This document shows, one piece after another, positions 15,322 to 28,484 of a stretch of 64,000 nt of DNA (position 1 is the first letter of the stretch; each line of letters starts with the position of its first letter). Below the pieces are notes generated by a model, which was not told the DNA's origin, ran no database searches, and saw nothing but the letters and a program-made list of their open reading frames with translations. The translations under genes and the position numbers were made by a program. This DNA is from Apium graveolens. Taxonomy: Eukaryota; Streptophyta; Magnoliopsida; Apiales; Apiaceae. Location of the stretch: the NCBI RefSeq assembly GCF_009905375.1, contig NW_027420740.1:1-64000 (forward strand). The letters are read 5' to 3'.

Positions 15322-15394
15322 TGTTAGGAATGTATGTGCATTAGTTTGATGATATGTTTAACAAAATACTTAAGTAGAAATTTAGTGTCTGTAG

Positions 15395-15835
15395 CCTCAA
15401 CGGATAAGACCACTTTGGCTATCCGTTGATGGTGTAGCTTTACTTAGAAATAAGTCTAGTGTTGTAGCATATTTCAGTCTCTGTATTTAAAATGTAATTC
15501 TTGGAAGTTGAGAGAAACTATGAGTCATGTTGACTACTAGATGATATGCAGATAGGAAGGCCAATTGTAAATACTTCATGCCTTGTAATTTTGTATAAGT
15601 GAAGTGGTATCAACGGATGACTTAAAGACCTTCAACGGATGAGAAGCTAAGCTTCAACGGATGTCTCTAAAGCTTCAACGGATAAAGTCATCAACGGATA
15701 ACATCCTTCAACGGATGAGTGCATCAACGGATGAAAGCTTCAACGGATAACATCCTTCAACGGATGAGTGCATCAACGGATGAAAGCTTCAACGGATGTT
15801 CTGATGATTAGCCGTTGATAAGGGGTAGTTGTACC
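15395..15835 (+). repeat. TCAACGGAT motif array in the 5' LTR
   Basis: By hand count there are thirteen exact CAACGGAT or ATCCGTTG motifs plus one variant (GCCGTTGAT). The first two form a facing pair (TCAACGGATA...TATCCGTTGA) with a 13-base loop near 15398-15428. Eleven more are in one orientation between 15611 and 15800, and the last six lie in a perfect 49-bp tandem duplication starting AACATCCTTCAACGGATGAG. The same array recurs in the 3' LTR at about 27479-27905. Confidence 0.93.
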
Positions 15836-16035
15836 TACAAACAGAGGCACATGGGTTGATAGAGACAACTGAGATGTGGTAGCCGAATTTCAGGAACAAC
15901 AGAAAAAGCAGCCGTTCTTCTCTAGTACAAAGATGCAATAGTCAACAAAGTACTGGAGTGAACAGGAAAAGAAGCAAGTGAAGATCTTATTTTATTACTG
16001 TATTTTATATTGTTCTTCACTTGTACACTTGGTAA

Positions 16036-16043
16036 TATATAAA
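16036..16043 (+). promoter_or_regulatory. TATA box in the 5' LTR
   Basis: TATATAAA about 365 bp before the LTR end, downstream of the motif array; repeated at about 28120 in the 3' LTR and conserved in copy L. Likely core promoter of the element. Confidence 0.5.
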
Positions 16044-16402
16044 CCAAGTAGAAGCTAGTAATTAGATGAGAGATTTTCCAGAGCTGTTTAGAAAAATATT
16101 GAGAGAAAATTCATCTAGTTTGAACTAGGATGCAGCTGTGATCAACATTGGTTAATCACAGATTTTCTAAAATACCATCTCTGGTGGAACAACAAATCCA
16201 CCATAAAAGTTTTTAAGGTCTGTTGTGTTCTTTACATTTGTGCTTGAATATATATCTGTCTGTATTAGCTTAAAGCAATTCACACACTTGTTCTTCTTGA
16301 ACACACAACTTTCATAAACTGCTCAAAACTTGAAAAAGTTTTGAGATTTACATTCAACCCCCCTTCTGTAAATCTCATTGTTAGTCCACTAGGAATAACA
16401 AT

Positions 16403-16414
16403 TGGTATCAGAGC
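16403..16414 (+). other. Primer-binding site (initiator tRNA-Met type)
   Basis: TGGTATCAGAGC two bases after the 5' LTR; standard for plant Copia elements. Confidence 0.9.
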
Positions 16415-25700: not shown

Positions 25701-27217
25701 AGCCTGATGGAATTGATTTGATTCAGCTAGCAGCAGCTGAAATTCAAGTGAAAGAGCAAAGGAGGAGAATTGATGAAAGGTTGCAACTGTTGTTTGGTTC
25801 TACACAAGACAAATCAACATCTGTGAAATACAGCACAAAAATTGAACCAATCAACATGGAGCTCATGCCAGTAGGGAGTCATAAGGATGGAGAAGCTTCT
25901 TCCAAAGAACTACAAGCTATAATTCTCAAGCCCAATGAAAGATCCAATAAGGACTCAACAAAGAATCCTTTAAAAGAAGTGGACTTTCCTCCTCCAAAAG
26001 CTGATGAGAACAAGATTTTAGGCAGAAGTATTGCTTATCTCAAAAAGACCATGGATGAGGCTGTAAGGAGAAATAGAGCTATTATCATTAGAGAGGGAAA
26101 GAGCATATGTGTGATGCAAGGACATCCCAAATTCTCAATAGCCAAGAAGGAAGAAGACAAGCAATTAAAGGCTGACAAAAGAGCACAAGCAAAGCTTGAA
26201 CAACAGCTAAAGTCAAGTCTAGTTGAAAAAGAAAAAGGGATTGAAGTCAGGGGTGAAGACAAGACTACAAACCTAGATGAGGTTTTAGGGAGTATATTTG
26301 GTGAGAGTGTGGAAGAAAGAGAGGAATGGCAGAAGGGAAACAGAAGAAAGGCCAAGGCACATAGAAGGAGTGGAGATAACACTGAAGTAACCAAATCTAT
26401 ATCTAAACCACTACCTTCCATACCTGAACCCCTTGTTGCTGATCCCACAATAAACATCCATGGTGAACCAATCATTCCAAAAGAGGAACCTATTGATTGG
26501 GACACTATCAAATTGCCTACCTTTCTAACCACTCTTCCACTACCAAAGAAACAGAAAAGAAAACCAAAATCTACACCTCCCATAACCTCTAAGAAATTCA
26601 CTCAAAAACAAAAACCTAAGCCTAAGTCACCCATTTCTAAAGATGATTATGTTCACATCTGTGACATAAAAGAAATTTCAGACATTGAACTCTATCTGGA
26701 TGAGCTGGAGGATGTAAGGGGAATAGCTGCCTACAGACAGTTACCAGAGAGATTAGTGTTCAGATATAAAGGAGCTGGGGAAAGAACATGGCCTCTCCAC
26801 AGGATTCTGGATGAAGGCTACTCTACCTTGATTAGAGTCTATTCAGCTATACAAAAGGATTCTGGCTTTACCAGAACTGCCAAGACTGAAATTCTCAACA
26901 AGATAGCCAATATAAGGAAAACTTGGAGGGAGCCCAATGCTTTACCCAGGACTTTACTCATTCAAGAAAGGGAAATGAAAATTCTTAAATCACCTCATTG
27001 GTTGATGGAATTTAGAGATGATAAAGGAGTCAGAAGATTTTTCAGACTTGAAGACCAACTCAAGATTGCCAGCAATGAAACTCTCAAAGAAATGCAATCT
27101 AAGTTGGATGTCAGTGTTGAAGATGAAGCTGAATTCTTCAGACAACTCCAACTCCAAATTGAGGAAAATGACAAAAGGCTAGGAAAGAAAACCAGGGAAC
27201 AAAGAAGAAAAAGATGA
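22772..27217 (+). pseudogene. Long 3' ORF of Copia copy R (position of the Sire env-like gene), two frameshifts
   Basis: Starts ATG at 22772 (MAPVVKIMSQSGFIYEKN) and spans about 1480 codons in three pieces. A frameshift near 22868-22873 shifts frame 2 to 3, and one near 24215-24235 shifts 3 back to 2. The N-terminal 230 residues look globular (KEWSFLGDAFIKVFSG, NNIYYARFFMLLANHV). A long Ser/Thr/Pro-rich middle follows. Then come Lys/Glu-rich probable coiled coils, and a C-terminal globular part (RLVFRYKGAGERTWPLHRIL, RFFRLEDQLKIASNETLK) ending KTREQRRKR. No signal peptide or transmembrane segment is evident, so 'envelope' is by position only. Six TCAACGGAT-type motifs form three facing pairs at 24363-24480. 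Similar tails occur in proteins from plant Sire-type elements, from memory. Confidence 0.75.
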
Positions 27218-27392
27218 TTTGCTCAGACTAAAGGAGTGTCCTTGGAAACACTGTAAATCTTCAATTATCTCCTAGTACATACACTTTTGCAGCATTTTTA
27301 AATTTCTACTTAGTTTCAATTCATATATCTGTTAAGTGTTTTGTTATCATCAAGTTAACCCTGAATTTATGCCTACAATTCTTATAGACATA

Positions 27393-27404
27393 AATAGGGG
27401 GAGA
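27393..27404 (+). other. Polypurine tract
   Basis: AATAGGGGGAGA immediately before the 3' LTR (27406), the expected plus-strand priming site. Confidence 0.85.
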
Positions 27405-27405
27405 T

Positions 27406-28484
27406 TGTTAGGAATGTATGTGCATTAGTTTGATGATATGTTTAACAAAATACTTAAGTAGAAATTTAGTGTCTGTAGCCTCAACGGATAAGACCACTTT
27501 GGCTATCCGTTGATGGTGTAGCTTTACTTAGAAATAAGTCTAGTGTTGTAGCATATTTCAGTCTCTGTATTTAAAATGTAATTCTTGGAAGTTGAGAGAA
27601 ACTATGAGTCATGTTGACTACTAGATGATATGCAGATAGGAAGGCCAATTGTAAATACTTCATGCCTTGTAATTTTGTATAAGTGAAGTGGTATCAACGG
27701 ATGACTTAAAGACCTTCAACGGATGAGAAGCTAAGCTTCAACGGATGTCTCTAAAGCTTCAACGGATAAAGTCATCAACGGATAACATCCTTCAACGGAT
27801 GAGTGCATCAACGGATGAAAGCTTCAACGGATAACATCCTTCAACGGATGAGTGCATCAACGGATGAAAGCTTCAACGGATGTTCTGATGATTAGCCGTT
27901 GATAAGGGGTAGTTGTACCTACAAACAGAGGCACATGGGTTGATAGAGACAACTGAGATGTGGTAGCCGAATTTCAGGAACAACAGAAAAAGCAGCCGTT
28001 CTTCTCTAGTACAAAGATGCAATAGTCAACAAAGTACTGGAGTGAACAGGAAAAGAAGCAAGTGAAGATCTTATTTTATTACTGTATTTTATATTGTTCT
28101 TCACTTGTACACTTGGTAATATATAAACCAAGTAGAAGCTAGTAATTAGATGAGAGATTTTCCAGAGCTGTTTAGAAAAATATTGAGAGAAAATTCATCT
28201 AGTTTGAACTAGGATGCAGCTGTGATCAACATTGGTTAATCACAGATTTTCTAAAATACCATCTCTGGTGGAACAACAAATCCACCAGAAAAGTTTTTAA
28301 GGTCTGTTGTGTTCTTTACATTTGTGCTTGAATATATATCTGTCTGTATTAGCTTAAAGCAATTCACACACTTGTTCTTCTTGAACACACAACTTTCATA
28401 AACTGCTCAAAACTTGAAAAAGTTTTGAGATTTACATTCAACCCCCCTTCTGTAAATCTCATTGTTAGTCCACTAGGAATAACA
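27406..28484 (+). repeat. 3' LTR of Copia copy R
   Basis: 1079 bp, TGTTAGGAATG to AGGAATAACA, followed by target duplication ATGAT at 28485-28489. Nearly identical to the 5' LTR, with the same motif array and 49-bp duplication. Confidence 0.95.

What the first reader, a model, noticed from the sequence alone, without database searches (positions are those of the whole stretch)
15322..28484. A short motif, TCAACGGAT / ATCCGTTGA, is spread through every part of a Copia element, coding and non-coding
I count about 46 exact CAACGGAT/ATCCGTTG motifs: 13 per LTR, 4 in gag, 4 in the integrase-RT linker, 6 in the spacer after pol and 6 in the 3' ORF. The motif is read as different peptides: Ser-Thr-Asp and (Tyr/His)-Pro-Leu in gag and the 3' ORF, but Ser-Val-(Asp/Glu) in pol. 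So what is kept is the DNA or RNA word, not the protein. The coding copies sit in disordered linkers. This looks like a dispersed cis-element collected by the retrotransposon and I know of no description of it.
Basis: partly seen in the sequence, partly recalled or inferred. Interest (0 to 1): 0.9.

Follow-up and report, generated by a model that had tools for sequence, protein, structure and literature searches.

The report
Nine-base word kept across a retrotransposon
A plant jumping gene carries dozens of copies of one nine-letter DNA word in its control regions and inside its genes, the word is protected from mutation, and a sister lineage uses a coherently changed version of it, which points to a protein that reads the word.

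Summary
In detail: 46 exact TCAACGGAT/ATCCGTTGA in 15322-28484 (13+13 LTR, 4 gag, 4 integrase-RT linker, 6 spacer, 6 3' ORF) against 0.005 in dinucleotide shuffles. The element is a structurally complete Sirevirus-type Copia with broken frames, in a 3.33-Gb genome that by its nearest named proteins is an Apiaceae. Across 14-16 copies the 9-mer varies 2.3-5.4 times less than its surroundings, also at third codon positions, with edges at exactly nine bases. Of 68 CpGs, 46 lie in the word. The kind is not undescribed: Sirevirus 'repeated motif' boxes with a CGG-CCG core in LTRs and before the env-like gene were published in 2010 (PMC2829016). New, as far as I found, are copies kept inside gag and pol, and a word switch: a sister subfamily carries YCGACGGAT in gag, pol linker, spacer and 3' ORF (46 of 46 exact words), the window's subfamily TCAACGGAT (277 of 281). 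I predicted that word from celery peptides before searching. One LTR and a third subfamily are mixed. Best explanation: binding sites of a sequence-specific DNA-binding protein, host or element-encoded, not yet identified.

The parts
15322..16400 (+). 5' LTR (1079 bp; TSD ATGAT at 15317-15321 and 28485-28489; one difference from the 3' LTR)
15397..15429 (+). inverted pair of words in the 5' LTR (starts 24 apart)
15610..15797 (+). direct array of 11 words in the 5' LTR, starts 16-22 apart, about 240 bp before a TATATAA at 16036
16406..16414 (+). primer binding site TATCAGAGC after CA/ATTGG
16462..18876 (+). gag region (two frames in this copy; Retrotran_gag_2, zinc knuckle)
18091..18157 (+). 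4 words in gag (++--), read STD, STD, YPL, HPL
18890..22210 (+). pol region (integrase frame 18890-20290, RT frame 20294-22210)
20323..20422 (+). 4 words in the integrase-RT linker (---+), minus ones 24 bp apart
22298..22451 (+). 6 words in the spacer after pol, with near-words at 22314, 22483 and 22504
22857..27217 (+). 3' (env-like position) open frames 22857-24275 and 24233-27217; no Pfam family below E 0.01; homologues of up to about 1500 aa in Heracleum suggest one longer gene, split here
24362..24476 (+). 6 words in the 3' ORF (+-+-+-), starts 16, 23, 25, 26, 16 apart
27396..27405 (+). terminal polypurine tract AGGGGGAG followed by AT, before TG of the 3' LTR
27406..28484 (+). 3' LTR with 13 words at the same places as in the 5' LTR
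1..4217 (-). second family copy, cut by the window start: LTR 3159-4217 with 10 words, gag with the same 4 words

Best explanation
TCAACGGAT is the recognition site, in double-stranded DNA, of a sequence-specific DNA-binding protein on which the element's success depends: a Sirevirus 'repeated motif' box. The LTR array would act upstream of the promoter and the spacer cluster upstream of the env-like gene; clusters in gag, the pol linker and the 3' ORF extend the same site set into coding DNA where the protein tolerates it. Shown: density, both orientations, conservation of exactly nine bases, retention of the CpG where the rest of the coding DNA has almost none, and subfamily-specific versions of the word. 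Whether host or element encodes it is open.
For: 46 words against 0.005 expected. Genome-wide 42,152 direct (N7) and 22,187 inverted (N7) pairs, reversed controls 0. Difference inside/outside words: gag 0.027/0.113, pol linker 0.044/0.103, spacer 0.079/0.185, 3' ORF 0.028/0.147; random 9-mers as low in 0.14%, 3.8%, 0.3%, 0 of 5000 draws. 46 of 68 CpGs in words; ACG codon 6 of 6 and CCG 5 of 6 in words. Sister subfamily: 46 of 46 exact words are YCGACGGAT, 27 of 27 in pieces not used to find it.
Against: No binding, expression or methylation data. No DNA-binding domain found in the 3' frames (the one fold search had no match at E 0.001). The LTR of E157 mixes 5 A-type and 4 G-type words, hybrid palindromes number 1,619, and a third subfamily is mixed with an orientation bias I cannot explain. 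In 3 of 14 window-type copies one 3' ORF site is TCGACGGAT.
Confidence: 0.68

Rival explanations
1. Element-encoded reader (a special case of the best explanation): a protein of the element, from gag or the 3' ORF, binds the word and activates or de-silences its own copies, as VANC proteins do for VANDAL transposons; word and protein co-evolve.
For: A coherent change of the word in coding and noncoding sites of one lineage, as described for VANC targets (PMC5735166, passages); the changed word fits none of three plant MYB consensuses; similar arrays in distant Copia elements would parallel the unrelated AT9TSD1 elements carrying VANC6 motifs.
Against: No DNA-binding domain recognised. VANC21 motifs lie in noncoding regions. 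Mixed words in one LTR and in the third subfamily.
Confidence: 0.28
2. Host MYB-type factor: the word is a MYB site (YAACKG, CNGTTR, AACGG) that recruits a host activator to the LTR; copies elsewhere are extra enhancers.
For: CAACGGAT holds CAACGG, YAACKG, AACGG and, reversed, CNGTTR, consensuses listed in PMC6600228 and PMC4560428 (passages). Arrays of the word also stand in distant Copia contexts.
Against: YCGACGGAT, the word of the sister subfamily, holds none of these. A 6-base core would not explain conservation of all nine bases. Copies inside genes are unusual for this.
Confidence: 0.25
3. RNA structure: inverted pairs form hairpins in the element's RNA, for packaging, control of translation or small-RNA production.
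For: Many internal words stand in inverted pairs, several 16 bases apart; maize Sirevirus LTR palindromes are tied to structured RNA and small RNAs (PMC10760457, passages).
Against: The LTR array has 11 words in one orientation, as have three words of the pol linker; bases beside the word are not kept. No covariation test was run.
Confidence: 0.08
4. Repeat slippage or template switching spread the word without function.
For: The LTR array and the 24-bp pol-linker array are tandem repeats with copy-number change.
Against: Between clusters only the nine bases are shared and bases just outside differ about fourfold more; CpGs survive in words and hardly elsewhere in coding DNA; scattered sites in both orientations changed together.
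Confidence: 0.04

Closest known systems
Sirevirus repeated-motif (RM) boxes, Bousios et al. 2010 (PMC2829016; abstract, sections 9, 10, 19 and passages seen)
   Same: Short CGG-CCG motif, element-specific version, many copies (8-32 per element there), clustered in the upper half of the LTR and upstream of the env-like gene; a few at its start in Osr10 and HOPIE; function left open.
   Different: Here conserved words also lie in gag, the integrase-RT linker and well inside the 3' region; the LTR array is mostly one-directional half-sites; two sister subfamilies use words one base apart.
VANC proteins and their 9-base target motifs in VANDAL transposons (PMC5735166, passages seen)
   Same: Nine-base word, many copies, tandem arrays, word differs between related families.
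   Different: VANDALs are DNA transposons with a known binding protein and demethylation; there the motif is in noncoding regions. No reader or methylation data here.
Maize Sirevirus LTR palindrome CACCGGACNNNGTCCGGTG (PMC10760457, passages seen; Bousios et al. 2016 itself not read)
   Same: Sirevirus, CGG/CCG palindrome, cis-region of the LTR.
   Different: Discussed there for structured RNA and small RNAs; here the LTR array is direct and the word extends into genes.

Membership tests
Sirevirus | 5' LTR end CA, then ATTGG, then PBS TATCAGAGC | tested here: met
   identical string at 16399-16414
Sirevirus | terminal PPT followed by AT and TG of the 3' LTR; further PPT copies in the linker | tested here: met
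   AGGGGGAG-AT-TG at 27396-27407, octamer 5 times in the element; the paper's own octamer is in a figure that I could not see, so its identity was not compared
[quoted passage not shown]
   CAACCCCCC at 16355 and 28439
Sirevirus | large gag with zinc knuckle and coiled coil; long frame after pol | tested here: inconclusive
   gag and zinc-knuckle domains found; coiled coil not tested; long frames after pol without a Pfam family
Sirevirus | place in an RT tree with named Sireviruses | not tested
   no named reference set was fetched
Sirevirus RM box | CGG-CCG core with dyad symmetry | tested here: inconclusive
   inverted N7 pairs exist (3 exact in the window element, 22,187 in the genome), but the LTR array is direct
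Sirevirus RM box | at least 8 copies, clustered in the upper half of the LTR | tested here: met
   13 words at LTR positions 76-476 of 1079
Sirevirus RM box | extra cluster upstream of the env-like gene | tested here: met
   6 words at 22298-22451
Sirevirus RM box | clusters form CpG islands | tested here: inconclusive
   CpG observed/expected 1.09 in the spacer and 0.46 in the LTR against 0.15 for the element; no island caller was run
VANC-type anti-silencing system | element-encoded protein that binds the word | not testable with these tools
   no binding data; no DNA-binding domain recognised in the 3' frames
VANC-type anti-silencing system | loss of DNA methylation around the words | not testable with these tools
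   no methylation data for this genome
Plant MYB site | MYB consensus (YAACKG, CNGTTR or AACGG) in the word of every subfamily | tested here: not met
   present in TCAACGGAT, absent from YCGACGGAT (words; consensuses)

The most novel reading that the evidence does not exclude
A retrotransposon family carries its own address code: a nine-base duplex word placed in control regions and inside genes, read by an element-encoded protein, with a sister lineage that has rewritten the word coherently at coding and noncoding sites. This would be a retrotransposon counterpart of the VANC-motif systems.
Probability: 0.28. Interest if true: 0.92.

Novelty: new variant of a known kind. Interest (0 to 1): 0.72.

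Why it matters
Sirevirus RM boxes were described in 2010 and their role was left open in the text that I read. Finding them conserved inside genes, at nine exact bases, with a sister lineage using a word one base away, makes the question 'what reads the RM box' directly testable: two words and two subfamilies in one genome.

Tried and rejected
Chance: 46 against 0.005. Conservation of the peptide: rejected on frames, codon positions and noncoding copies. Slippage alone: disfavoured on flanks and joint change.

A second prediction failed: from carrot-type peptides (STD with HQL) I expected TCAACTGATN7ATCAGTTGA; the genome holds 1 such site, with ordinary words beside it. The DNA of carrot could not be seen.

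Viral-contig scans (78 and 49 stretches) were not analysed further. Paper searches for the bare 9-mer gave listings without a relevant title. The two 3' frame models have mean pLDDT 43.6 and 46.9; only the first was searched for folds. Shuffles were run on the window, not on other copies. A count of the single 9-mer in the genome did not complete.

Rows set aside., 20 pieces: nine have no match to the window element and no full word (all 4 of E156, 2 of E158, 1 of E159, 2 of E160); L176 has no match either and is taken for E159's LTR from its array alone; E159's other pieces are shifted (L175 is gag, L174 integrase without words); L172 matches over 116 bases without words., 15 pieces: 8 hold no full word and were not counted, L182 and L188 of them match the element; identical pieces and pieces running off a stretch were left out, hence 14-16 rows.

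Full report
What was checked. Dinucleotide shuffles give 0.005. In the 46.5 kb tested outside the two family copies there is none. The word is missing from the integrase frame, RT-RNaseH and most of the 3' region, so it sits in clusters, not in every part.

What carries it. Two 1079-bp LTRs differ at one base and are flanked by ATGAT; the PBS junction, the AT/TG junction after a polypurine tract and a polyC stretch match the Sirevirus marks in PMC2829016. Gag and pol have Copia domains. Long frames after pol have no Pfam family. Gag and the 3' region lie in more than one frame, so this copy is broken. The closest named gag proteins are from Apium, Heracleum and Daucus, so the host is inferred to be an Apiaceae; the assembly has 3.33 Gb.

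Genome-wide. TCAACGGATN7TCAACGGAT occurs 21,199 + 20,953 times and TCAACGGATN7ATCCGTTGA at 22,187 sites; the patterns read backwards occur 0 times.

Conservation. I took 15 copies with paired LTR arrays about 12 kb apart, and one more piece, from one contig. The 15 hold 14-20 internal words each in 7.2 kb. Four clusters were aligned with the window (14-16 different rows each). Mean pairwise difference inside and outside the words: gag 0.027 and 0.113; pol linker 0.044 and 0.103; spacer 0.079 and 0.185; 3' ORF 0.028 and 0.147. The same number of random 9-base stretches is as low in 0.14%, 3.8%, 0.3% and none of 5000 draws. Third codon positions: 0.030 and 0.177 (gag), 0.051 and 0.146 (pol), 0.036 and 0.173 (3' ORF). 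Choosing the words by any one copy and leaving that copy out gives ratios of 0.13-0.47 (one spacer row without words is undefined). By position, difference is 0.163 and 0.174 just outside the two edges, 0.007-0.05 inside, and 0.096-0.097 at the CpG. Of 266 ungapped homologous words 224 are exact and 12 more are gapped; the commonest change is C5 to T, a CpG transition (9).

CpG and codons. The element has 68 CpGs, 46 of them in words; the integrase frame and RT-RNaseH have none. In the 15 copies 277 of 496 CpGs lie in words, which are 2.3% of the bases. In the reading frames ACG occurs 6 times, always in a word, against 199 other Thr codons; CCG 5 of 6 times.

A second word. Gag homologues of celery show STD with His/Tyr-Pro-Ser where the window has His/Tyr-Pro-Leu. 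I noted the prediction that the word there is TCGACGGAT and then found 1,622 palindromes TCGACGGATN7ATCCGTCGA in this genome, control 0. The five of them that were fetched lie in the same 3' ORF cluster with the same spacings. In gag, pol-linker and spacer pieces of these elements, which were not used to find them, 27 of 27 exact words are YCGACGGAT; with the four 3' ORF loci counted, 46 of 46 (L156 was not counted there, its four words are also YCGACGGAT). In element E157 each homologous site that still holds an exact word, 3 in gag, 3 in the pol linker and 5 in the 3' ORF, carries the change, while sequence outside the words is 62-76% identical to the window; spacer alignment is too gapped to use. 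The window's subfamily has 277 TCAACGGAT, 3 TCGACGGAT and 1 CCAACGGAT in 15 copies. In gag trees the Pro-Ser rows of celery and the own-genome copy L168 form one clade beside the window's clade. Three other rows were labelled Pro-Ser (P0003, where its linker is mostly missing; P0031 and P0032 in both). Most labelled Heracleum and Daucus rows read Pro-Leu, some Daucus rows Gln-Leu, so TCAACGGAT is probably the older word; the root is a midpoint and this is inference.

Limits of that. E157's LTR mixes 5 A-type and 4 G-type words, while the array taken for E159's LTR has 8 of 8 G-type. Hybrid palindromes number 817 + 802 = 1,619; with 22,187 and 1,622 pure ones, independent halves would give about 4,400 (my arithmetic). 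Some hybrids belong to a third subfamily: in seven pieces of three such elements minus-oriented words are 16 A-type and 4 G-type, plus-oriented 1 and 9. I cannot explain that bias. CpG decay can also turn TCGACGGAT into TCAACGGAT, so some hybrids may be decayed.

How it may work. A word kept base by base, in both orientations, in noncoding and coding DNA, with lineage-specific versions, behaves like a set of sites for a protein that reads duplex DNA. The first word fits plant MYB consensuses; the second fits none of them. That favours a reader whose specificity moves with the element, perhaps encoded by it, as VANC proteins are in VANDALs. I found no DNA-binding domain in the 3' frames; gag was not modelled.

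Known or new. RM boxes in Sirevirus LTRs and before ENV are published and their role was left open there. Paper searches, of an open-licence library only and judged from listings, showed no report of such boxes inside gag or pol or of a word switch.

Noticed in passing
L151 5001-5092, L152 4938-5057, L153 4978-5129: TCAACGGAT arrays, often 15-16 bases apart and partly decayed, in other Copia contexts whose gag, integrase or RT is distant from the window element (21-63% aa identity). The word may be shared with, or borrowed by, other elements.
   Followed up: partly
L185, L186, L189-L191, L195, L196: Third subfamily with mixed words: plus-oriented sites mostly TCGACGGAT (9 of 10), minus-oriented mostly TCAACGGAT (16 of 20).
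   Followed up: partly
15322-28484 and related copies: The coding parts are almost free of CpG outside the word (integrase frame and RT-RNaseH 0). Whether this reflects methylation decay in the lineage or selection is open.
   Followed up: partly
window 14127-14636, minus strand: Helitron helicase-like N-terminal domain (PF14214, E 6.6e-37) just upstream of the insertion site.
   Followed up: partly
window 29782-30193 and 30368-30907: Tandem pair of 206 nt (95% alike) and a 144-nt direct repeat 396 bases apart.
   Followed up: no
protein P0022: A protein filed under Rhizophagus irregularis matches these plant gag proteins (47% identity, whole query); it may be host-root contamination in that assembly (inference).
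   Followed up: no
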